Shown: one piece after another, positions 1-13,482 of the stretch
How the letters are laid out: every line of letters starts with the position of its first letter
Position numbering within the stretch: the stretch's first letter is position 1
Source: a virus
Direction: 5' to 3' (one strand)
Virus record (IMG/VR): IMGVR_UViG_3300001344_000024
Location: 1 to 25,350 of that record
DNA length: 25,350 nt
Notes under the pieces: model-generated
The model's database searches: none
What the model saw: the letters and a program-made list of their open reading frames with translations, nothing else
What the model was told of the DNA's origin: nothing
Translations under genes and position numbers: made by a program

Positions 1-1818
1 TGAAGTTCCTGAGGTTCCTGAAGTTGCACTTAGGCCACTTTCTCCTGCTACCCCATTTGAACCTGATGTACCATTTGTTCCTGTTGAACCTGAGGTTGCA
101 CTTTCTCCTGATGTGCCATTTGTTCCACTTTCACCTGAAGTACCTGATGTACCTGCTGAACCACTTGTAGCACTTTCACCTGATGTTCCTGCAGTACCAG
201 ATTCTCCTGAAGTACCTGAAGTACCTGAAGTACCTGATGATCCTGAAGTTGCACTTAAACCTGAAGTTCCGTTTGTTCCATCTGCTCCTGAAGTACCACT
301 TGTTCCTGATGAACCACTTGTTCCGCTTTTTCCGTTTGTTCCAGATGTACCATCAACTCCACTTGTTCCTGAAGTACCTGAAGTTGCACTTAAGCCACTT
401 TCACCTGCTACTCCGTTTGAGCCACTTGTACCATTTGTTCCTGTTGAACCACTTGTTGCACTTAAACCTGATGTACCTGATGTTCCATCTGCTCCTGAAG
501 TACCGCTTGTTCCTGAAGATCCTGAAGTTTCACTTTCTCCTGATGTTCCTGCTGTGCCTGATTCACCTGAAGTACCACTAGTACCTGATGAGCCGGATGT
601 TGCACTTTCTCCTGAAGTACCTCTTGTTCCATCTGCTCCTGAAGTACCTGAAGTTCCTGATGAACCTGCTGTACCACTTACACCTGAAGTTCCTGAGGTG
701 CCATCTGCACCACTGGTTCCTGATGTACCACTTGTAGCACTTAAGCCACTTTCTCCGGCAACACCATTTGAACCTGAAGTTCCATTTGTTCCTGTAGAAC
801 CACTTGTTGCACTTTTACCTGATGTACCTGATGTTCCATCTGCTCCTGAGGTACCACTAGTACCTGAAGAACCACTTGTACTACTTTCACCTGATGTTCC
901 CGCAGTACCAGATTCTCCTGAAGTACCTGAAGTACCACTTGAGCCTGATGTTGCACTTTCTCCTGATGTACCTCTTGTTCCATCTGCTCCTGAAGTACCA
1001 CTTGTTCCTGAAGAACCACTTGTTGCACTTAAACCTGAAGTACCTGATGTACCATCTGCACCACTGGTTCCTGATGTACCACTTGTAGCACTTAAGCCAC
1101 TTTCTCCTGCTACTCCGTTTGAACCTGATGTACCTGAAGTACCTGTTGATCCTGAAGTAGCGCTTTCTCCTGAAGTTCCGCGTGTTCCATCTGCTCCTGA
1201 AGTACCTGAAGTACCACTTGAGCCTGATGTTGCACTTTCTCCGCTTGTTCCTGCTGTGCCTGATTCACCTGAAGTACCACTAGTACCTGATGAGCCGGAT
1301 GTTGCACTTTCTCCTGACGTACCTCTTGTCCCATCTGCTCCTGAAGTACCTGATGTACCTGAAGTACCACTTGTACCACTTGAACCTGAAGTACCTCTTG
1401 TTCCATCTGCTCCTGAAGTACCTGATGTACCACTTGAGCCTGATGTTGCACTTTCTCCTGATGTACCTACTGTGCCGCTTTCACCTGAAGTACCTGAAGT
1501 ACCACTTGAGCCTGATGTTGCACTTTCTCCGCTTGTTCCTGCTGTGCCTGATTCACCTGAAGTACCACTTGTTCCTGAAGAACCACTTGTTGCACTTAAA
1601 CCTGAAGTACCGTTTGTTCCGTTTTCACCTGATGTACCTGAAGTACCTGATGTACCTGATGTACCTGAAGTAGCACTTTCACCTGATGTTCCTGAAGTAC
1701 CAGATTCTCCTGAAGTACCATTTGTTCCTGTTGAACCTGATGAACCACTTGTACCTGAAGTACCAGATTGGCCTGCTGTACCACTTGAACCTGAAAATCC
1801 ACTAGTACCACTAGTTGC
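1..1818 (-). repeat. Gly-X-Y coding array with a 72-nt (24-residue) super-repeat
   Basis: The coding strand is built of 9-nt Gly-X-Y units. The Gly position carries an Ala codon with low coordinates 25, 97, 169, 250, 385, 457, 601, 736, 808, 952, 1024, 1087, 1159, 1231, 1303, 1447, 1519, 1591, 1672 and 1816. At 529 the same slot is Glu and at 880 it is Ser. All spacings are multiples of 9, most are exactly 72 nt, and the rest are 63, 81, 135 or 144. The typical unit is seven Gly triplets followed by one Ala triplet. Third codon positions vary between copies, so the protein pattern is more regular than the DNA pattern. Confidence 0.92.
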
Positions 1819-2658
1819 ATTTACATATCCTATAAGACCTGTTGAAGGGTTATATGTTAATAATTCAGGTCTATCTTGTATTGGAGCTGATATTATAGAA
1901 AAATCATCTCCGGTACCACTTACATCAAATGTACTACTACCGGTTACTGCGAATCCACCTGGAACACCCCCAACTGATCCTGTTATTTGTGCTGATCCTG
2001 AAAATGGAAAAGCATTACCTCCACCAACACCACCATCTGCTAATGTAGGACCTACATATTGGTATGCTGATAAAACGACAGTATCTCCGGTTGATGGTGA
2101 GACTGAATTATCTACGAATTGTATTACACCTGTTTTATAATCAAATTGATAAAAAGCTGAATCTTGTTCAGTACCATTTACTCTAACAGTAACATTATAT
2201 CCAGGTGTACCGTTTCCTGCGGGTACATTATCCTCAGTATTTTTAAATGTTAAGGAAGCATCTGAATATTTTGGTGATAAAAAGTTTGTTTGTTGTCCAT
2301 CCTGTATAATTTGAGGAGTAACAGCTATTGTAGGATCATGTGCTGATTTTGATATAAAGAAAAATACTTCTGTTTTACTACCATTAACAACCGATGATGG
2401 TGTTAATTGATGTTGGAAGTGAAACTTTACAATATCAACAGCTGTTAAAGCTGAACCTGATTCTATTGTATCTTGGTTCTGTCCACTACCAGAATATGGT
2501 AAATTATTTAAGGGAACAAAATTTTCTCTTATATAAACATCACCAGCATTAATGTCGAGAGTTCTTGTGAATGCCTCCTGAGCATCAGTACTCTGCTCCA
2601 TTGTATATCTCTTACTCTGGAGTAATCTATTCGACTTTTTTATTTTATCTAATGCCAT
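1..2658 (-). CDS. Collagen-like tail fibre / appendage protein (3' end outside window)
   Basis: The reading frame opens at an ATG at 2658 and stays open to base 1, giving 886 codons with no stop, so the C-terminus is missing. Residues 1-280 form a non-repetitive head beginning MALDKIKKSNRLLQSKRY, probably the attachment domain. From about residue 281 the protein is an almost uninterrupted Gly-X-Y array (about 202 triplets visible) dominated by GTS, GSS, GES and GTA. By my reading it contains no proline, unlike animal collagen. Gly is replaced by Ala at regular intervals, described in the repeat entries. Phage collagen-like proteins are usually fibres or shaft segments of tail appendages, and the position after neck and appendage genes fits that. 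The start lies 17 nt after the upstream stop, implying co-transcription. Function as a fibre is inferred; the Gly-X-Y coding is read directly. Confidence 0.87.
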   Translation of the reverse strand, partial: MALDKIKKSNRLLQSKRYTMEQSTDAQEAFTRTLDINAGDVYIRENFVPLNNLPYSGSGQNQDTIESGSALTAVDIVKFHFQHQLTPSSVVNGSKTEVFFFISKSAHDPTIAVTPQIIQDGQQTNFLSPKYSDASLTFKNTEDNVPAGNGTPGYNVTVRVNGTEQDSAFYQFDYKTGVIQFVDNSVSPSTGDTVVLSAYQYVGPTLADGGVGGGNAFPFSGSAQITGSVGGVPGGFAVTGSSTFDVSGTGDDFSIISAPIQDRPELLTYNPSTGLIGYVNATSGTSGFSGSSGTAGQSGTSGTSGSSGSTGTNGTSGESGTSGTSGESATSGTSGTSGTSGTSGENGTNGTSGLSATSGSSGTSGTSGESGTAGTSGESATSGSSGTSGTSGESGTVGTSGESATSGSSGTSGTSGADGTRGTSGSSGTSGTSGTSGTSGADGTRGTSGESATSGSSGTSGTSGESGTAGTSGESATSGSSGTSGTSGADGTRGTSGESATSGSTGTSGTSGSNGVAGESGLSATSGTSGTSGADGTSGTSGLSATSGSSGTSGTSGADGTRGTSGESATSGSSGTSGTSGESGTAGTSGESSTSGSSGTSGTSGADGTSGTSGKSATSGSTGTNGTSGSNGVAGESGLSATSGTSGTSGADGTSGTSGVSGTAGSSGTSGTSGADGTRGTSGESATSGSSGTSGTSGESGTAGTSGESETSGSSGTSGTSGADGTSGTSGLSATSGSTGTNGTSGSNGVAGESGLSATSGTSGTSGVDGTSGTNGKSGTSGSSGTSGTSGADGTNGTSGLSATSGSSGTSGTSGTSGESGTAGTSGESATSGSAGTSGTSGESGTNGTSGESATSGSTGTNGTSGSNGVAGESGLSATSGTSGTS
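25..1449 (-). repeat. Higher-order repeat of 351-360 nt within the collagen array
   Basis: A distinctive block encoding G-S-N-G-V-A-G-E-S-G-L-S-A (variants in individual copies) recurs at plus-strand positions near 28, 388, 739 and 1090. The flanking Ala codons at 25, 385, 736, 1087 and 1447 are spaced 360, 351, 351 and 360 nt. Sequence between these marks is colinear from copy to copy, including the segments reading ccatctgctcctgaagtacc and cctgctgtgcctgattcacc on the plus strand. The array thus looks like a tandem amplification of a 117-120-residue unit that was already internally periodic. Confidence 0.85.
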
Positions 2659-6800: not shown

Positions 6801-7964
6801 TTATCCTATATAAATTGGAAATGGAACCTTGCCTAATTCTTTTTCAATGAAATCGCTTTCGGCTGTTCTTCTTTCTAGTAATTTTTCTCTTGATGTTTCT
6901 CCTAAATAAGCCCTTAACCTATCAATTAATCTTTCTTTTTCTCCAGTAGCTGCTGTAATTAAATCATTTGCATTTAGTGTAACATTATCCCCAGGGACTG
7001 GTACTACTTGATATTTACCTCTAACATACCCTAACATTTCTTTACATAAAGCTAAAGCATATTCAAATATCCAACTTCTACCTACTGAGTTAATATCATC
7101 GTAATTTGGGTTTTTATAAGGTACATCATATATATTAGTAATAGTACTACTTCCACCTACTACAAAGGAAGCTGAAGATCTTTCTGAGTTAAGAATATAT
7201 TCAAAGTATAATTTTGGGACTGATCCATCGGGTATTGGGAAAATTCTTAAATTATTGTTATGCATTTCAAAAGAATAATTTGCTCTTCTGATCATATCAT
7301 TAAATTCTATTTGTTGGATAACTTGTAAATCATAATTAATAGGCATTAACATGAAATTTACACCAGCAGGAGAAAATCCATCCCAACCAAAAGTATCCAT
7401 CATATCCATAGTACCCATTCCTGCTCCTACATAAGGATCAAAAAATCTTAACATTGCAGGTGGAGCTTCATAAAAAACTCTCATAATTTCTATATCATGA
7501 TCCTTATAATGTGGTATAGTATCCTTTGCCCATTCTTCTAAATTATAATCTTGTACTGATTTTGTTAAATTAACATGACCTGTATGCCAGTCAACATTAC
7601 CACCAGTACCAGCTTCAACCCCATATTGTTCTGACATTTGGATTATTCTTCCTAGATTTGGAACAACAACTGAATTTTCAATATCCATAGTAGAAGCATC
7701 TGCTCCTTCTAAGGTTAAATAATTATCTCTAATTTTAAACCCGTATAATTCATTAGCATATATTGTTACTGCTTCTTCAAAAGCAGCATAAAAGTTTAAA
7801 TCTTGAAGTTCAACATCCACAATAGGATATCCTAATCTTCTTGCTGCAAAAGTTGAAAATTTATCTGCGTCTATTTGGAATTCAGGATCATTATCATAAA
7901 ACCCAAAAGGTGTATCTCCTGGGTGGAATGAACTAGATCCGGGCCATATTGGTATATTTGCCAT
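6801..7964 (-). CDS. 13: gp13-like neck protein
   Basis: The protein is 387 residues. Its N-terminal region contains TPFGFYDNDPEFQIDADKF and a following LGYPIVDVELQDLNFYAAFEE segment, characteristic of the gp13-like neck/head-completion proteins of marine T4-like phages. T4 gp13 is 309 aa. The family works with gp14 to seal the portal after packaging. No membrane segment or enzymatic motif is visible. The C-terminal part is rich in charged residues (about 330-375, with RLIDRLRAYLGE and REKLLERR) and looks alpha-helical. It begins 10 nt after the preceding stop and is followed 1 nt later by the gp14-like gene, so 13-14-15 form one tight unit. Confidence 0.7.
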   Translation of the reverse strand: MANIPIWPGSSSFHPGDTPFGFYDNDPEFQIDADKFSTFAARRLGYPIVDVELQDLNFYAAFEEAVTIYANELYGFKIRDNYLTLEGADASTMDIENSVVVPNLGRIIQMSEQYGVEAGTGGNVDWHTGHVNLTKSVQDYNLEEWAKDTIPHYKDHDIEIMRVFYEAPPAMLRFFDPYVGAGMGTMDMMDTFGWDGFSPAGVNFMLMPINYDLQVIQQIEFNDMIRRANYSFEMHNNNLRIFPIPDGSVPKLYFEYILNSERSSASFVVGGSSTITNIYDVPYKNPNYDDINSVGRSWIFEYALALCKEMLGYVRGKYQVVPVPGDNVTLNANDLITAATGEKERLIDRLRAYLGETSREKLLERRTAESDFIEKELGKVPFPIYIG

Positions 7965-7974
7965 AGTTTTTTAT

Positions 7975-9288
7975 TTATGCGTTATCTGAGTTAACAACTA
8001 CGTATTCAACATCCATCCTTTCTGTTTCAGCATACACAGAAACAAATTCTATATCTTGCTCAAAGAAGCCGTTAAATGTACTTCCTGTAACTTGAGGACT
8101 TGAAAACATTAAAGATGATGTAGGTAATACATCCATCGTCCAGTAACTTCTTGCTCCATTTTCTGTAAAATCATTTAAGGTTAAAGTAAATACGGCATCT
8201 GTTGAATTACCTATTTCAGCACCATTTACTGTAATTGTTTCTCCTACTTCATACCCACTTCCACCTGCTGCTATTTTTGCTTGAAATACGTTTGTATTTA
8301 TATTACTACTAGTTAAGGCTAACATAGATGCTGCAGATGAATCAGCAACATCATCTGCTATTAATGTATTAGTATAATCTGAACTTACTACTCCAAACCC
8401 TACATTAGTTAGTTGATCTTGAGATATTGTAATTGTTTGATTTTCCAAATATCCTGTTCCTATATTTACTGGTTTTACTACTGTAATTACACCACCATCT
8501 GACTTTACACTAACTGTACCACCTTGACCTGTAGCTGTATAAACTGCTATTTCTCTTGTTATATTATTTGTTACATTAGGAATTAAACCGTTATTAGTAA
8601 AAGGTTGATTTGTTACTAATTGTCCCGTTCCTAAATCTCCGCTTGCAATTGTTAATAAATCTCCTACTACATATCCTCTTCCAGGATTTAATACCATTAC
8701 AGTTGATAATGTTGGTGTAGATGGATTTGCTCCTGTAACTACTGCTTGAGCTGTTGCTCCAGTACCGCTACCTCCTATTAAATTAACATTATAAGTTCCA
8801 GTAGCACAATCATCGGGTGCAATATTTAATCCTAAACTTTGACTCATTATTAAAGATGAAGAAATAACAACATCTAATGTCATCCCACTACCACTAACAC
8901 TTGCTGTAGTTGGTACACCTGCGTATAACCCAATTACACCCCCAACACCACCGCTTGTATAAGATGAAGTTAAATCCGTACCTATAACGCCTATCCCATC
9001 AGGTGACTTTGATGATGTAAAAGAAACTGCTAATGAAGATGTTGTGTCTAAATTAGTAATCCTAGCATATTTCATACTACTTGATGGAAAAGTTCCTGCT
9101 GAAGGTCTTACCCCATTGACATTAAATAAATCAATTGGAGTTTGAGCTGGTATTGTAACTATTCTTCTATCTACATTAGTAATATTCCCTAATGTAAAAA
9201 ATGTTTCATTTGTAGTTTTAATACCCTTAACTACGTGTTCCTCCTTTATTTTAATCTGAAATGCTGATGGAGTAAGTATTGATGCCAT
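7975..9288 (-). CDS. Putative virion protein with three Gly-Tyr-Gly-type repeats
   Basis: I do not recognise the exact family of this 437-residue protein. Three short related segments stand out: NPGRGYVVGDLL (about 201-212), NIGTGYLENQTITI (275-288) and AGGSGYEVGETITV (341-354). This G-x-G-Y-x-x-G-(D/E)-x-(L/I)-T-(I/V) pattern recurs in marine phage structural proteins and probably forms repeated small beta units. The rest is rich in Ser, Thr and Gly, with no signal peptide or membrane helix. It is the first gene after the PhoH terminator and directly precedes the neck genes, so it is likely a head, neck or decoration protein expressed late. A TATTTATA-type element lies 12 nt before the ATG. 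Confidence 0.6.
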   Translation of the reverse strand: MASILTPSAFQIKIKEEHVVKGIKTTNETFFTLGNITNVDRRIVTIPAQTPIDLFNVNGVRPSAGTFPSSSMKYARITNLDTTSSLAVSFTSSKSPDGIGVIGTDLTSSYTSGGVGGVIGLYAGVPTTASVSGSGMTLDVVISSSLIMSQSLGLNIAPDDCATGTYNVNLIGGSGTGATAQAVVTGANPSTPTLSTVMVLNPGRGYVVGDLLTIASGDLGTGQLVTNQPFTNNGLIPNVTNNITREIAVYTATGQGGTVSVKSDGGVITVVKPVNIGTGYLENQTITISQDQLTNVGFGVVSSDYTNTLIADDVADSSAASMLALTSSNINTNVFQAKIAAGGSGYEVGETITVNGAEIGNSTDAVFTLTLNDFTENGARSYWTMDVLPTSSLMFSSPQVTGSTFNGFFEQDIEFVSVYAETERMDVEYVVVNSDNA

Positions 9289-9311: not shown

Positions 9312-9340
9312 AAAAAAAGAGGCTTAATTGCTAAGCCCCT
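9312..9340 (-). terminator. Intrinsic terminator after phoH
   Basis: On the minus strand a GGCTTA / TAAGCC stem (plus 9332-9337 with 9321-9326) with a 5-nt loop is followed by CTC-like bases and a run of seven T (plus-strand A run at 9312-9318). It lies 16 nt past the phoH stop and just before the next candidate promoter, so it closes the amidinotransferase-decarboxylase-PhoH operon. Confidence 0.8.
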
Positions 9341-9355
9341 TTTAAATTTTTAGGA

Positions 9356-10090
9356 CTATCGCCTAGCTTTTCCGCTAGTGCCGGAGGATCCTTTAATAAT
9401 CCCCCTACTTTCAGCTTCTTCATAAATTTCAATCAAGTTATCCACAATTGGGTCTCTATGATTTTGCATTAAAGTAATAGAACACATATTTTTTACTTTA
9501 CGAGCTGCTGAGTATAAAAATCTAAAACCAGATTCTCGTTTTGATTTCAAATCAACTTGGTGGTCATCACCACAAATAATCATTTTTGATCTTAATCCTA
9601 TTCGGGTTGAAATCATTTCCATTTGTTCATGAGTAACATTCTGAGCTTCATCTACAATAATACAAGAGTCTAAAAAGGTTCTTCCTCTCATAAATGCTAA
9701 AGGAACTATTTCTACTTTGCCATCCTCAATTAATTTTTCTACTTTTACCTTATCATATAAGGCATACATATTTTGGTAAATAGGTTGAATCCAAGGATCC
9801 ATTTTTTCTCTTAAATCCCCAGGTAAAAATCCTATTTCTTCTTTTGAAACTGTAGGTCTAGTAATGATTATTTTTGAATAGTGTCTTCGTATAAGACCAT
9901 CTAAAGCAACTTGACATGCTAGGAGTGTTTTTCCAGATCCTGCTCTTCCGGCTAATAGGGTTAATGTGTTATCTAATATTTTTTGTTTGGCTTCTTTTTG
10001 TTCCTCGTTTAAACTTATTTTGAATTTTATTGGGTTCTTCACAGTTCTTTGTTTTCTGTGTACTTCGTCTGTGTGGGGTTTTGAAGGCAT
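9356..10090 (-). CDS. phoH: PhoH-like P-loop ATPase
   Basis: This 244-residue protein carries a complete PhoH-type ATPase domain. Walker A is AGRAGSGKT (about 47-55), followed by IIITRPTV (74-81), the GFLPGDLREKMDPW block (87-100) typical of PhoH, Walker B IIVDEAQN (144-151) and the IICGDDHQVDL sensor-like strand (171-181). PhoH proteins bind and hydrolyse ATP; some are linked to RNA or phosphate-stress functions, but their role in phage infection is not settled. PhoH genes are common in marine T4-like phages. Its ATG lies inside the 3' end of the decarboxylase gene, a 52-nt overlap in another frame, so it appears translationally coupled. A short basic N-terminal tail (residues 1-25) precedes the domain. 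Confidence 0.93.
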   Translation of the reverse strand: MPSKPHTDEVHRKQRTVKNPIKFKISLNEEQKEAKQKILDNTLTLLAGRAGSGKTLLACQVALDGLIRRHYSKIIITRPTVSKEEIGFLPGDLREKMDPWIQPIYQNMYALYDKVKVEKLIEDGKVEIVPLAFMRGRTFLDSCIIVDEAQNVTHEQMEMISTRIGLRSKMIICGDDHQVDLKSKRESGFRFLYSAARKVKNMCSITLMQNHRDPIVDNLIEIYEEAESRGIIKGSSGTSGKARR

Positions 10091-10806
10091 TTTTGAGTGT
10101 GGTTTATTTTAATTAATTTATCAAGACCAGCATTTACATGCATTGTATTATCTAATACAGTCTCAAACTCATATCTAGAATCTAGAGGTAGAACTAAATC
10201 TACTTGGGAACCCCATCTAATTAAACTGAATCTTTCGTTTTGGACACAAAGATCATTTTGTTGTTTAAAAGGGGCTATTACATTTACATCTTCATCGGCA
10301 ATTTGTATTAAATGGTATGTATAATCCAAAGAGGGAACATACACTTGGTTAGACATTCTTTCATTGTATTTTAAATATGCCATGTTGTTAGGATTAATTA
10401 CTTTATTTAATATATCCTTCTCTACAGCTAACATAGGTTGATTAGTAGATTCAATAGGCTCCAAACGTTTATATTTAAGTACACCCCCGTATGGAATTCT
10501 ATTAATATGTACATCATAAAATGACATAAATATTCCAATAACTAAAGAAGGGTGATTATAATCACGATCTCCCATTACATCTTGAAGTGTGTAATCAACA
10601 CCTTTTATTTCTAAAACTTGATCACCAGGTTGTACTACTTTTTGATATAAAATAGTTCCATCTGCTGGGCTATAAAAATGCTTATAATCTATATGTGTTG
10701 GCCTTAATGGATCTCTAAAGAAAAAATTATTACTTAACTCTCCTACAGACTTTTTAGATAATTCTGCAACTTCTCCATTTAACCAGTCTTCTAGTTTTTC
10801 AGCCAT
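10039..10806 (-). CDS. psd: Phosphatidylserine decarboxylase-like pyruvoyl enzyme
   Basis: The 255-residue product has the hallmarks of the PSD family: SPADGTI at 46-52, DVHINRIPYGG at 98-108, and RFSLIRWGSQVDLVLP at 192-207. In PSD the proenzyme cleaves itself at a Gly-Ser bond, converting the Ser into a pyruvoyl cofactor. Here that bond is G199-S200, and the Asp-His-Ser catalytic set corresponds to D49, H100 and S200. Known PSDs convert phosphatidylserine to phosphatidylethanolamine at the membrane, although some relatives decarboxylate other amino acids. No transmembrane segment is visible. A tail of about 45 residues after the usual end of the domain overlaps phoH. The start shares one base with the amidinotransferase stop (TAATG). 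The fold assignment is strong; the substrate is uncertain. Confidence 0.88.
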   Translation of the reverse strand: MAEKLEDWLNGEVAELSKKSVGELSNNFFFRDPLRPTHIDYKHFYSPADGTILYQKVVQPGDQVLEIKGVDYTLQDVMGDRDYNHPSLVIGIFMSFYDVHINRIPYGGVLKYKRLEPIESTNQPMLAVEKDILNKVINPNNMAYLKYNERMSNQVYVPSLDYTYHLIQIADEDVNVIAPFKQQNDLCVQNERFSLIRWGSQVDLVLPLDSRYEFETVLDNTMHVNAGLDKLIKINHTQKCLQNPTQTKYTENKEL

Positions 10807-11720
10807 TAAAGAAGTGATTTAAAGTGATCAACTCTATTTAAATGCATTACCATACAACTTAACATAGCTCCAGATTTCATATATTCAGATAAATTAAATA
10901 TAACAGGTTCCATCCCCTCGTCAGAACATATTTTTTCTAATGATTCAATTTTGTGTTTTTCACCCTCATAAAATTCATCTGATTTTTTTAATTCTGAAAT
11001 GTTTGAGGCACATAATATCATGTTTCCTAATCTAACAGAATTGGCCATTCCATAAGTAGAATCATCAGCATTTATATCTATTATATTTGTATATTTGCTT
11101 ATTTGCGCTAACTCTGTTTTATCATATAACTCAGTGCAAACCATAGTTGATCGCGTATTTAACGGGAAGATACTGCAGTCTAAGTGATACATATATTCAT
11201 CAACCATTTTAACTTTGATTACTTTCATATCAAAATTTTCTTCCATCCAGTGGTAGGTTTTAATATCTGATCTTATATCATACCCCCCAATATAAACATT
11301 ATCTTTTAGATATTTTATATCTGCTTCCCCTTCCCATTTATGGGGAGAAATGTGGGTTTTATAACCCATTTGATTAAAGAATTTTTCACCAACATATTCT
11401 TCACCCTGTCTTGGAGGTGAAGTATAATTTGATAATAAAATATGGTTTTCATCTTTAATGTGGGGTAATTGTAACCCTAAATTAGCAACGTATATTAAAT
11501 CTTGAAAATTACCTTCTGCAGGTAACAAATGTACTAATGATTGACCAGCCATAAAATTATACAAATCCATAAATTGTTTGTATGCTTTAGGTCTATTTAT
11601 AGCTAACTCTTTATCGGACATTTCTTTCATCCAAACGTTATTAGGGTCATTTGTTGAGAAAGTATGTGGGAAATTCATTACATAACTTTGAATCGGTAAC
11701 TGTGAAGGGGTTTCTTTCAT
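10806..11720 (-). CDS. Amidinotransferase / dimethylargininase-like (guanidino-modifying) enzyme
   Basis: This 304-residue protein aligns along its length with the pattern of DDAH-like amidinotransferase-superfamily enzymes: VMNFPHTF near the N-terminus, HLLPAEGNFQDLIYVANLGL (64-83) with a candidate Asp at 74, SPPRQGEE (101-108), WEGEAD (129-134), GGYDIRSDI (145-153), YHLDCSIFPL (178-187), then ANSVRLGN and SGAMLSCMVMHL (283-294). The expected catalytic residues are present: Cys289, His179 and the acid around 130-132. Family members act on arginine, methylarginine or related guanidino compounds by hydrolysis or amidino transfer through a Cys thiouronium intermediate. No signal peptide is visible. 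It is the first gene of the cassette with psd and phoH, following the capsid terminator. The exact reaction cannot be read from sequence. Confidence 0.83.
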   Translation of the reverse strand: MKETPSQLPIQSYVMNFPHTFSTNDPNNVWMKEMSDKELAINRPKAYKQFMDLYNFMAGQSLVHLLPAEGNFQDLIYVANLGLQLPHIKDENHILLSNYTSPPRQGEEYVGEKFFNQMGYKTHISPHKWEGEADIKYLKDNVYIGGYDIRSDIKTYHWMEENFDMKVIKVKMVDEYMYHLDCSIFPLNTRSTMVCTELYDKTELAQISKYTNIIDINADDSTYGMANSVRLGNMILCASNISELKKSDEFYEGEKHKIESLEKICSDEGMEPVIFNLSEYMKSGAMLSCMVMHLNRVDHFKSLL

Positions 11721-11744
11721 TTTAAAAACTATTTTAATTAATAT

Positions 11745-11760
11745 TCGAGTATAAATATAC
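11745..11760 (-). promoter_or_regulatory. TATTTATA-type candidate promoter of the metabolic cassette
   Basis: The coding strand contains GTATATTTATACTC, with the TATTTATA core at plus 11750-11757. It ends 29 nt before the amidinotransferase ATG, farther than at most other sites. It lies between the capsid terminator and the first cassette gene. Confidence 0.4.
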
Positions 11761-11764
11761 TAAC

Positions 11765-11777
11765 TACCTACTAGGTA
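11765..11777. promoter_or_regulatory. Perfect 13-nt palindrome, possible operator
   Basis: TACCTACTAGGTA consists of two perfect 6-nt arms around one central base. It sits just upstream of the TATTTATA element before the amidinotransferase gene, where a regulator could act. A single short palindrome in AT-rich intergenic DNA may also be chance. Confidence 0.25.
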
Positions 11778-11789
11778 CACACTAGTAAC

Positions 11790-11818
11790 AAAAAAAAAGC
11801 CCCGCTGACGCGGGGCTC
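11790..11818 (-). terminator. Strong intrinsic terminator after the major capsid gene
   Basis: The minus strand reads AGCCCCGC-GTCA-GCGGGGCT, a perfect 8-bp GC-rich stem with a 4-nt loop, followed by nine or more T residues (plus A run 11790-11798). It lies 24 nt past the capsid stop and is the clearest terminator in the window. Confidence 0.95.
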
Positions 11819-11841
11819 TTAATTTATTTATAATCTATTGA

Positions 11842-13482
11842 TTATAGAGTGTTTAAACCTTCTACGAAGATCTTACCATAAAATTCTGGTCTTACGACTT
11901 TCTTAGCGTAACGAGTTAATAGACCTTTTCTTGGAGTAAAGGTATTTGGATCGTATACTAATGGAGTCATGATTAACGGAATATATGGAGCAAATACAGC
12001 ACCTGCTTCTAAGAATTGTCCACCTCTAAAGCCCATTAAAATGGTATTTTCAGTCATGTATGGATTCTTATAAACTGTGTATCTTGAATTGATAGTACCT
12101 GCTTTTTGTACACCAAATGCGTAGCTCATTTTAGCAGCATCACCATCAGAAGTACTAGCAAATCCTGGAATGGATTCGATAATTGTAGCTACTGTTGGAG
12201 AACATACCATAAAATTAGCTCCACCTCTTAGAGTTTTCTGGTGAATGATATTACTCAATTTCTGAACTTTAGTTCCTAAAGTTTGGAACCATTGTCCTTG
12301 TGAGTTGTAGAAACCTAAATCTGAATCTACAACACCTGTTGAAGCTAATGCTAAGTTATTCTGTGCACTCCAGTACTCAGTACCAGCAGCAGCAGATTCG
12401 ATCAACATATCAAGAATTTCTAAATCAATTTCTAATGAGATATACTCACTCATAATTGAAGTTAATTCAGCTTCAGCATCCAAAGAGTGGTAAGCGTTAA
12501 GATCTTGAGCAAACTCAGGAGTCCAAACAGCTTTCAATTTACGAGTCTTAGCAACAATTGCTTCCGACTGCATTTGAATATTGATTTCTGGAATTGAAAT
12601 TGGAGTGTTGTCAGCATTTAAGTTGTTATTACCATCTTCAAAATCACCTCTTTGAGCGTCATTTGTTTGTAGTAAATACTCAACTTTTAATGCACCTGCT
12701 TCAACAACATCAGAACCTACAAAGAATTCAATGTTTGCACCATTGATTTTAGTAAATTGTGGGTATTGAGTAGCAGAAGCTGGTAAATCAGCAGCTGAAC
12801 CTGAAAGGTAAAAACCTCTTACTGCTCTTTCATCAAAGTTAGGTAATGAAGCAGAAGGGACAGTTAATTTTACAATTTGACCTGAAGCACCTGCAACATA
12901 AGACTGAGATACTGAAGAATCAGCATTCAAATCACTATACCAATCAACAGAACCAGAAGCTACTGCATAAGCAGCAGATTGAGTATTGTTAATTGAATAA
13001 CCAAATCTACCAGCACCATAAAGACCACCTGTAGCACCATTACCAAATGGTAAGTTACCGTCAGTATCACCGTAAAGTGATCCGCCTTGTGCAAAAGGTT
13101 GTTTACCTGCAGTTCCGTATTGGAAATCTAGATAAAATACTAGACCAGAAGGTAAATTCATTGGTTGAACCGAAACGAATTCTTTCGCTGCGATTTGACC
13201 AAATACCTTTCTTACTAGTGGTAAAGCTACACCTGCCCATTGTGCTCCTGTTCCAGGAGTGAATGTACCTGCTCCAGGAAGTGGACCACCGGTGTTACTT
13301 TCTTCCATCACTAATTGCTTAGCTTGGTTTTCAAGGATCATAGACATATTGTTTTTCTCAGTTTCGTTTCCGATACCTTCTAACAAGCCTGTCTTGTTCC
13401 ATTTGTTGGCTAATCTTGCAGCATCACTTTGTAGTGACTTGTAAGGATTAGCGCTTTCTAAAAGAGAATTTAATTGACTCAT
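11842..13482 (-). CDS. 23: Major capsid protein, gp23-like
   Basis: The 546-residue product is close in size to T4 gp23 (521 aa). The N-terminal region has NKWNKTGLLEG and ILENQAKQLV, parallel to the T4 propeptide (NKWKPLLEG...FENQEKDF). It is followed by FVSVQPMNLPSGLVFYLDFQYG (about 104-125), the counterpart of 'CGVQPMNSPTGQVF'. Later landmarks include KLKAVWTPEFAQDLNAYHSLDAE and the C-terminal GKIFVEGL. In this family hexamers form the head shell, and the prohead protease removes the N-terminal propeptide. By comparison with T4, processing here probably falls near the acidic VMEES at 58-62, before a GAGTFTPGTG segment. It follows scaffold and protease genes as expected and ends at a strong terminator. 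No TATTTATA element precedes it. Confidence 0.95.
   Translation of the reverse strand: MSQLNSLLESANPYKSLQSDAARLANKWNKTGLLEGIGNETEKNNMSMILENQAKQLVMEESNTGGPLPGAGTFTPGTGAQWAGVALPLVRKVFGQIAAKEFVSVQPMNLPSGLVFYLDFQYGTAGKQPFAQGGSLYGDTDGNLPFGNGATGGLYGAGRFGYSINNTQSAAYAVASGSVDWYSDLNADSSVSQSYVAGASGQIVKLTVPSASLPNFDERAVRGFYLSGSAADLPASATQYPQFTKINGANIEFFVGSDVVEAGALKVEYLLQTNDAQRGDFEDGNNNLNADNTPISIPEINIQMQSEAIVAKTRKLKAVWTPEFAQDLNAYHSLDAEAELTSIMSEYISLEIDLEILDMLIESAAAGTEYWSAQNNLALASTGVVDSDLGFYNSQGQWFQTLGTKVQKLSNIIHQKTLRGGANFMVCSPTVATIIESIPGFASTSDGDAAKMSYAFGVQKAGTINSRYTVYKNPYMTENTILMGFRGGQFLEAGAVFAPYIPLIMTPLVYDPNTFTPRKGLLTRYAKKVVRPEFYGKIFVEGLNTL

What the first reader, a model, noticed from the sequence alone, without database searches (positions are those of the whole stretch)
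9312..11818. Metabolic cassette (amidinotransferase, PS decarboxylase, PhoH) framed by two terminators in the structural region
Three overlapping genes sit between the capsid gene terminator (11790-11818) and a second terminator (9312-9340), with their own candidate promoter. Two encode host-type metabolic enzymes with intact catalytic residues. One speculative idea is that the decarboxylase makes ethanolamine lipid and the guanidino enzyme acts on arginine or on that amine; a simpler one is arginine or methylarginine hydrolysis alongside membrane lipid remodelling during assembly or lysis. The combination is one I do not recall as a described phage module.
Basis: partly seen in the sequence, partly recalled or inferred. 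Interest (0 to 1): 0.75.

Follow-up and report, generated by a model that had tools for sequence, protein, structure and literature searches.

The report
Phage arginine-to-amine two-enzyme pathway
Next to its capsid gene this virus of bacteria carries two enzymes that travel together in nearly every virus examined and are neighbours in rare bacteria, where a pump gene usually joins them; most likely they turn the amino acid arginine into a small charged amine such as putrescine.

Summary
The genes, overlaps and terminators are real. PhoH is backbone: Flavobacterium phage immuto, closest by capsid, has gp23 and PhoH here but no match to the other two. The module is the pair A (10806-11720) and P (10039-10806). 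All 45 annotated phage records matching P also match A. Of 292 loci, none lacks a partner except at contig ends or where, in Campylobacter phages, it lies elsewhere. In 27 of 29 bacterial loci P is followed by A, and in 21 of 29 a MATE exporter lies within 1.6 kb. A folds like arginine dihydrolases ArgZ/AgrE (Z 34.5; amidinotransferases at most 24.1) and keeps their Asn71 and Cys264 equivalents. P has the PSD fold and Gly-Ser, but acidic QIADYDVDCI replaces the basic IAGLVARRI of four of seven canonical PSDs, suggesting a cationic substrate. A related arginine decarboxylase is known from Aspergillus. Best reading: arginine to ornithine to putrescine. Biochemistry untested; lipid remodelling unlikely. 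No paper that the searches listed was seen to describe the pair.

The parts
10806..11720 (-). A: guanidino-modifying (pentein-fold) enzyme, arginine-dihydrolase-like, 304 aa; residues aligned with AgrE/ArgZ N71, R90, E118, R139, H168, D170, C264 are N80, R104, E130, R150, H179, D181, C289
10039..10806 (-). P: PSD-fold pyruvoyl decarboxylase, 255 aa; presumed pyruvoyl-forming Gly199-Ser200; a motif conserved in canonical PSDs is replaced by an acidic one (D171, D173)
9356..10090 (-). PhoH-like ATPase, 244 aa: downstream neighbour and syntenic backbone gene, not part of the pair
11750..11758 (-). promoter-like motif ATATTTATA, 29 nt upstream of A; one of 7, all on the minus strand; upstream of A in 9 of 16 relatives, ATATGTATA in 6 more
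11795..11820 (-). intrinsic-terminator-like hairpin after gp23 (11 bp stem, T tract)
9315..9343 (-). intrinsic-terminator-like hairpin after PhoH (13 bp stem, T tract)
11842..13482 (-). gp23 major capsid protein, upstream neighbour that places the pair in the structural region

Best explanation
A and P form a two-step soluble pathway from arginine to a small polyamine. A hydrolyses L-arginine, as ArgZ/AgrE do, to ornithine, ammonia and CO2. P, a pyruvoyl enzyme of the phosphatidylserine decarboxylase fold in which a conserved basic motif has become acidic, decarboxylates the cationic product, most likely ornithine to putrescine. In bacteria the same two genes usually have a MATE exporter gene nearby. 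The phage has the enzymes without the exporter, so the amine would stay inside the infected cell; the promoter-like motif shared with structural genes suggests that it is made when heads are built and DNA is packaged, where it could serve as a counter-ion or feed host spermidine synthesis. Shown: gene identity, pairing, bacterial operon, fold of A, conserved active sites, motif change in P. Inferred: both substrates, the order of the steps, the product, the timing, the purpose.
For: Pairing: all 45 records with P also have A (46 with A). Of 292 loci, 276 have both on one strand, 274 of them no more than 19 nt apart; the other 16 are the window itself, one inverted pair (L155), six cut by contig ends and eight loci of Campylobacter phages whose records have the two genes far apart (with 12, 13). 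Bacteria: P then A in 27 of 29 loci, MATE within 1.6 kb in 21 of 29. A: the only significant solved relatives by sequence are AgrE/ArgZ; model pLDDT 93; Z 34.5, rmsd 1.8 over 264 residues, against 27.6 for AstB, 26.7 DDAH, 22.8-25.6 arginine deiminases, 22.6-24.1 amidinotransferases, about 21 agmatine deiminases. N80 aligns with ArgZ N71, which is Ser in the N71S entry 6juz; R104 and R150 align with R90 and R139 (that these bind the alpha-carboxylate is recalled); all are invariant in 126 of 126 distinct full-length phage proteins. P: D171 in 127 of 128 distinct full-length phage and 28 of 28 bacterial proteins; the seven canonical PSDs of the same genomes have Gly (4) or Ala (3) there. An arginine decarboxylase of Aspergillus oryzae (9jer) matches the P model nearly as well as PSD does, and PMC12283126 cites such an enzyme as pyruvoyl-dependent (passage). 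Trees of A and P agree (distance correlation 0.95 among phages). Phages encoding polyamine enzymes of other folds are known (PMC9992855, passages).
Against: No activity has been measured. NCBIfam arginine dihydrolase equivalog score 86 against a cut-off of 450. No spermidine synthase or AdoMet decarboxylase in any of 13 phage records, some of them fragments, so no fuller polyamine pathway was seen in the phage. The fold search does not separate amino-acid decarboxylases from PSD for P (PSD 10.8, PsiD 9.5, fungal arginine decarboxylase 9.2), and the unrelated IIA-Glc domain scores higher, 11.9, on part of it; the P model is less certain (pLDDT 83). D173 is not fully kept: Gln in 4 of 128 phage proteins, all from Campylobacter phages. 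In 3 of 12 bacterial genomes P is the only PF02666 match. MATE exporters also accompany guanidino natural products, which suits a transferase (recalled). How often a MATE gene lies near an arbitrary gene was not measured.
Confidence: 0.5

Rival explanations
1. A is an amidinotransferase: it moves the amidino group of arginine to an amine made by P, giving a guanidino compound and ornithine. With P an ornithine decarboxylase, the two would cycle and turn arginine into agmatine; with another substrate they would make a small guanidino metabolite that bacteria export by MATE.
For: Fold relatives include SxtG, AGAT and HsvA, a polyamine amidinotransferase (Z 23.4-24.1). MATE gene nearby in bacteria; the NCBIfam guanitoxin exporter GntT is among the sub-threshold matches of 2 of the 5 MATE proteins scanned. 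Campylobacter phage copies are annotated as amidinotransferase.
Against: ArgZ/AgrE stand 10 Z units above any amidinotransferase listed, no amidinotransferase is found by sequence in the PDB at E<=1, and the ArgZ-type Asn is invariant in phages.
Confidence: 0.2
2. P is an arginine decarboxylase making agmatine, and A acts on agmatine or on arginine in parallel, as a deiminase or dihydrolase.
For: The basic amino-acid decarboxylase found among the fold relatives of P is an arginine decarboxylase.
Against: A keeps both arginines that match AgrE R90 and R139, recalled as alpha-carboxylate ligands; agmatine deiminases are among the lowest-scoring guanidino enzymes listed.
Confidence: 0.12
3. P is a true phosphatidylserine decarboxylase that changes membrane lipid, and A is unrelated arginine catabolism.
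For: PF02666 above cut-off, Gly-Ser and catalytic Asp/His present.
Against: Motif of canonical PSDs lost; a second, higher-scoring PSD in 9 of 12 bacterial genomes; pairing with A and a nearby MATE exporter.
Confidence: 0.06
4. The pair decorates phage DNA bases or nucleotides (hypermodification).
For: Large phages often modify DNA (recalled); the Bacteroides phage locus has dCTP-deaminase-like and IMPDH-like genes beside the pair.
Against: IMPDH match in only 2 of 14 records. A bacterial operon with an exporter does not suit DNA modification. Fletcherviruses are recalled to carry deoxyinosine in place of dG and no other altered base (paper not held).
Confidence: 0.05

Closest known systems
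ArgZ / AgrE arginine dihydrolase (N-terminal domain), cyanobacteria
   Same: Fold (Z 34.5, rmsd 1.8 over 264), catalytic Cys, His, Asn71 and both arginines kept
   Different: About 22% identity; no second domain; paired with a PSD-fold decarboxylase; below the equivalog score
Phosphatidylserine decarboxylase (PF02666) and amino-acid decarboxylases of related fold: PsiD (tryptophan), Aspergillus oryzae arginine decarboxylase
   Same: Fold, Gly-Ser, catalytic Asp and His
   Different: Where four of seven canonical PSDs have IAGLVARRI or TGAIARRI with GSR, and three a different type with GST or GGS, P has QIADxDVxxI and GSQ; found with A
Phage- and virus-encoded polyamine enzymes (PMC9992855)
   Same: Viral supply of putrescine-type amines, pyruvoyl decarboxylases among them (passages)
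   Different: The passages seen name AdoMetDC-derived and PLP decarboxylases and arginase; its main text does not contain the words phosphatidylserine, dihydrolase, Campylobacter or Bacteroides
'Aminidotransferase' and 'phosphatidylserine decarboxylase' genes of Fletchervirus NCTC12673
   Same: Relatives of both genes, 36-40% identical
   Different: About 42 kb apart in that genome and annotated separately

Membership tests
Phosphatidylserine decarboxylase (EC 4.1.1.65) | PF02666 profile above gathering score | tested here: met
   84.4 bits, cut-off 22
Phosphatidylserine decarboxylase (EC 4.1.1.65) | Gly-Ser self-cleavage site, catalytic Asp and His | tested here: met
   D49, H100, G199, S200 in 128 of 128 distinct full-length phage and 28 of 28 bacterial proteins; self-cleavage itself not tested
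Phosphatidylserine decarboxylase (EC 4.1.1.65) | Conserved motif of canonical PSDs before and at the pyruvoyl site (its role in head-group recognition is inferred) | tested here: not met
   P has QIADxDVxxI and GSQ; of 7 canonical PSDs of the same genomes 4 have A/T-G..ARRI with GSR, 3 are of another type with GST or GGS, none has the Asp
Phosphatidylserine decarboxylase (EC 4.1.1.65) | NCBIfam PSD equivalog cut-offs | tested here: not met
   Best 73.5 bits against 183
Phosphatidylserine decarboxylase (EC 4.1.1.65) | Decarboxylates phosphatidylserine | not testable with these tools
   Needs assay
Arginine dihydrolase (ArgZ/AgrE) | Pentein fold closest to ArgZ N-domain | tested here: met
   Z 34.5, rmsd 1.8 over 264 residues; next family listed 27.6
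Arginine dihydrolase (ArgZ/AgrE) | Asn71, His168, Cys264 equivalents | tested here: met
   N80, H179, C289 in 126 of 126 distinct full-length phage proteins; in bacteria 24, 25 and 24 of 25
Arginine dihydrolase (ArgZ/AgrE) | NCBIfam NF052232 equivalog cut-off | tested here: not met
   86.3 bits against 450
Arginine dihydrolase (ArgZ/AgrE) | Arginine to ornithine plus two ammonia | not testable with these tools
   Needs assay
Arginine:X amidinotransferase (AGAT, StrB, SxtG, HsvA) | Closest match by fold and by sequence among solved guanidino enzymes | tested here: not met
   Z 22.6-24.1 against 34.5 for ArgZ; none among sequence hits at E<=1
Arginine:X amidinotransferase (AGAT, StrB, SxtG, HsvA) | Transfer of the amidino group to an amine | not testable with these tools
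   Needs assay
Known phage polyamine modules (PMC9992855) | AdoMetDC-fold decarboxylase or spermidine synthase in the phage | tested here: not met
   0 of 13 records for PF02675 and 0 of 13 for PF01564, some records being fragments
PhoH-like | PF02562 above cut-off | tested here: met
   213.8 bits, cut-off 27

The most novel reading that the evidence does not exclude
A previously undescribed two-enzyme route from arginine to putrescine (or another exported cationic amine), built from an ArgZ-type dihydrolase and a PSD-fold decarboxylase with a charge-reversed motif. It is rare and scattered as a bacterial operon with a MATE exporter, but common in large phages, known hosts of which are Bacteroides and Campylobacter; the phages run it as a closed intracellular module, in the window's group beside the capsid gene. 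The PSD fold would then be a further fold for ornithine decarboxylation.
Probability: 0.42. Interest if true: 0.75.

Novelty: new variant of a known kind. Interest (0 to 1): 0.62.

Why it matters
An annotation that looks like lipid metabolism is probably an amino-acid decarboxylase. If so, many environmental phages, a group of Campylobacter phages and some Bacteroides phages share a compact arginine-to-amine shunt that can be tested with two purified proteins. It would explain two families that PHROGs lists as of unknown function (phrog_12670, phrog_12759), define a bacterial operon with an exporter whose product is unknown, and give a direct way to ask why phages need polyamines of their own.

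Tried and rejected
Three-gene cassette with PhoH: rejected, because PhoH is backbone and is not found in the loci of the pair in DAC23 and NCTC12673. IMPDH / deoxyinosine link: only 2 of 14 records. MATE in phages: 0 of 13. Further polyamine genes in phages: 0 of 13 twice. A third conserved gene in the Saccharothrix and Streptoalloteichus loci without MATE: nothing shared was found among the few ORFs tested. Of the two Streptoalloteichus loci, one has an amidase upstream and APH, MarR and MFS genes downstream, the other unrelated genes, so no link to a bleomycin-type cluster was shown; that idea came from a note in the NCTC12673 record (that the accession cited there is the bleomycin cluster is recalled). 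Sequence alignment of P to the Aspergillus arginine decarboxylase 9jer: not obtained. ORFs between A and P in L163 and L156: they look like GIY-YIG homing endonucleases (read by eye), not pathway enzymes. Prevalence in cells at E<=1e-30: 1 of 298 genomes in the phylum of the Sulfurimonas MAG and 2 of 396 in the phylum of Streptoalloteichus, each count including the genome used as centre. Sigma-70 promoter scan: no enrichment. A possible fusion of A with MATE in L331 could not be judged, because part of that locus is masked; not pursued.
Full report
What is there. The window is itself a whole virus record of 25,350 bases and holds a T4-like structural region on the minus strand: terminase, portal, prohead protease and gp23. 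Among annotated phages its gp23 is closest, at 60% identity, to Flavobacterium phage immuto. Between gp23 and a gene at 7975-9288 lie A (304 aa), P (255 aa) and PhoH (244 aa), bounded by two terminator-like hairpins. The motif ATATTTATA occurs seven times, all on the coding minus strand, six of them 10-29 nt upstream of an ORF, A included; no shuffle of 100 reached seven. In the leader of A, ATATTTATA is present in 9 of 16 relatives and ATATGTATA in 6 more; L028 has neither. I read it as a promoter of the phage's own type; that it is a late promoter is inference from its neighbours.

PhoH is a neighbour. In immuto the order is gp23, tail fibre, hypothetical, PhoH. tblastn with A and P finds nothing in that stretch at E<=1, while PhoH matches at 58%, and immuto is not among the matches of A or P over whole records. 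The gap between gp23 and PhoH is thus a variable slot, and the module is the pair A-P.

The pair in phages. In 50,697 annotated phage records P has 45 matches and A 46 at E<=0.01; all 45 records with P are among the 46. They are 39 Campylobacter phage records (some are GenBank/RefSeq duplicates; NCTC12673 is filed under Fletchervirus, and that the others belong there too is recalled) and six Bacteroides phages. The one record with A alone (PP921807) matches A over only 48% of its length. IMG/VR was scanned four times (each call keeps the best 80). With the phage-record loci and the window's own copy, 292 loci were held. Loci of different scans overlap; full-length copies (273 loci with A, 277 with P outside the bacterial set) represent 131 distinct A and 136 distinct P nucleotide sequences. 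276 loci have both on one strand, 274 of them no more than 19 nt apart; in L163 and L156 an ORF that looks like a homing endonuclease lies between. The other 16 are the window copy L004, the inverted pair L155, three A-only and three P-only loci that end at contig ends, and eight loci of Campylobacter phages with the two genes far apart (33.7 and 76.6 kb in NCTC12673; the IMG/VR copies were matched to named records by their lengths). So the arrangement varies but the partnership does not.

The pair is also a bacterial operon. The only scan of bacterial and archaeal genomes, with a P alignment, gave 30 loci. L321, titled Flavobacteriales, has the phage order and phage-type genes and was set aside. 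Of the other 29, titled Sulfurimonas, Sedimenticola, Thioalkalivibrio, Gammaproteobacteria, Saccharothrix, Streptoalloteichus, Pseudonocardiales, Gaiellaceae, Verrucomicrobia in many forms, Latescibacterota, Eisenbacteria or just bacterium, 27 have P followed directly by A, two of these A genes being cut by contig ends. The exceptions are L305, with no A in reach, and L322, cut at a contig end. A MATE transporter (PF01554) lies within 1.6 kb of A in 21 of 29, co-directional in some and convergent in Verrucomicrobiales; in L302 another ORF lies between. Six of these loci supplied the MATE profile and were confirmed by Pfam first. Of the eight without it, three are cut by contig ends (L310, L314, L322), four are Saccharothrix or Streptoalloteichus, one is L305. 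No background rate for MATE neighbours was measured. Phages have no MATE (0 of 13 records). In unrooted trees of 48 paired sequences (29 phage, 19 bacterial) the phage proteins fall on one side (support 0.995 for A, 0.735 for P), and distances of A and P correlate at 0.95 among phages, 0.81 among bacteria and 0.91 overall. The operon is rare in cells: 1 of 298 and 2 of 396 genomes in two phyla, counting the genomes used as centres.

What A is. By sequence its only significant solved relatives are AgrE and ArgZ, arginine dihydrolases (E down to 1.5e-28 with the family profile). AlphaFold gives pLDDT 93. The model matches ArgZ at Z 34.5, rmsd 1.8 over 264 residues; then come AstB 27.6, DDAH 26.7, arginine deiminases 22.8-25.6, SxtG 24.1, HsvA 23.8, AGAT 23.6 and agmatine deiminases about 21. 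In the alignments N80 falls on ArgZ N71 (Ser in the N71S entry 6juz), R104 on R90, E130 on E118, R150 on R139, H179 on H168, D181 on D170, and C289 on C264 in a weak, separate stretch (numbers counted from the printed AgrE residues). All seven are unchanged in 126 of 126 distinct full-length phage proteins; among 25 bacterial ones only L303 departs, having lost N80, R150 and C289. In ArgZ and DDAH the two arginines bind the alpha-carboxylate (recalled; the papers are not held). If so, A acts on arginine itself, not on agmatine. Against this, the score is far below NCBIfam's equivalog cut-off, so I do not file A as ArgZ; I say it most likely works like it.

What P is. P has the PSD profile, the Gly-Ser expected to become the pyruvoyl group, and the catalytic Asp and His. 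Eight stretches with strong other PF02666 matches of the same bacterial genomes were fetched; one gave no match to the profile used and was dropped. Of the seven compared, four read like QIAGLVARRI ... FGSRVDL where the pair's P reads QIADYDVDCI ... YGSQVDL, and three are of another type (VSALNV, VGAIFV, IGATNV with GST or GGS); none has the Asp. D171 is Asp in 127 of 128 phage and 28 of 28 bacterial proteins; D173 is Gln in four Campylobacter phage proteins. Basic residues have become acidic in a motif before the pyruvoyl site; that it touches the substrate, and hence that the substrate is cationic, is inference. Nine of 12 bacterial genomes have another, higher-scoring PSD as well; in the other three P is the only match. 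The fold match is to E. coli PSD (Z 10.8), the tryptophan decarboxylase PsiD (9.5) and an Aspergillus oryzae arginine decarboxylase (9.2), too close to choose between; the IIA-Glc domain scores 11.9 on part of the model. PMC12283126 (passages seen) names an Aspergillus oryzae enzyme as one of three convergent pyruvoyl arginine decarboxylases; that 9jer is this enzyme is inferred.

How it most likely works. Arginine to ornithine by A, ornithine to putrescine by P. The steps are inferred; the pairing, the lack of any third enzyme seen in both phages and bacteria, and the nearby MATE exporter (MATE proteins are recalled to export organic cations) make a short pathway to a small cation the simplest reading. 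In bacteria it would be exported; in phage-infected cells it would accumulate. Polyamines neutralise packaged phage DNA (recalled), and viruses need spermidine to replicate, partly for translation (PMC9992855, passages and start of abstract). The main rival is an amidinotransferase that makes a guanidino product.

What is known. Phages encode polyamine enzymes of other kinds (PMC9992855). A paper on ocean viruses discusses psd and creatine genes separately (PMC11360552, passages). Full-text searches for the two enzyme names with phage, Campylobacter or natural-product terms listed no paper whose title, abstract start or passages that I saw described the pair. Only listings were seen for most of them, searches listed 20 of 31 and 20 of 42 papers, and the library holds only openly licensed papers. 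PMC2853527 (passage) reports a putative glycine amidinotransferase in a radical-SAM cluster of Campylobacter phages CP220 and CPt10; these are not among the matches, and whether they are in that collection was not checked.

Verdict. The finding is a conserved but uncharacterised arginine-to-amine module shared by phages and rare bacterial operons.

Noticed in passing
window 113-2140 (+): 675-aa ORF on the strand opposite to the structural genes, in a stretch of GC 0.46 against 0.27-0.36 elsewhere, with two matches to a short PHROG of unknown function; perhaps the edge of another module.
   Followed up: no
window 5228, 9301, 11750, 16789, 18558, 20477, 23023 (-): Motif ATATTTATA, minus strand only, six of seven 10-29 nt before an ORF: a candidate promoter motif of this phage group.
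   Followed up: partly
L163 1919-2668, L156 8910-9440, L003 8731-10185, L001 12782-14320: Homing-endonuclease or homing-endonuclease-like genes between or right after the pair in several phage lineages; the pair seems to be a favoured target.
   Followed up: partly
L001 14388-15870, L156 11284-12750: Bacteroides-type phages carry a dCTP-deaminase-like gene and an IMPDH-family gene after the pair, perhaps for an unusual purine in DNA.
   Followed up: partly
L303 / L325 (Streptoalloteichus hindustanus): One copy of A has lost the catalytic Cys, the Asn and one Arg while P beside it keeps the residues checked; a second P-A pair lies elsewhere in the genome (L327), where simple searches for some motifs of A also failed.
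   Followed up: partly
L321 (Flavobacteriales MAG contig): Phage-type A-P pair in a bacterial bin: either a misbinned phage or a hint that Flavobacteriales are hosts.
   Followed up: no
window 6801-7964, 7975-9288 (-): Genes after the second terminator: one matches the head-tail adaptor family phrog_211 (E 9e-11), the other matches no PHROG or Pfam family at E<=0.001.
   Followed up: no
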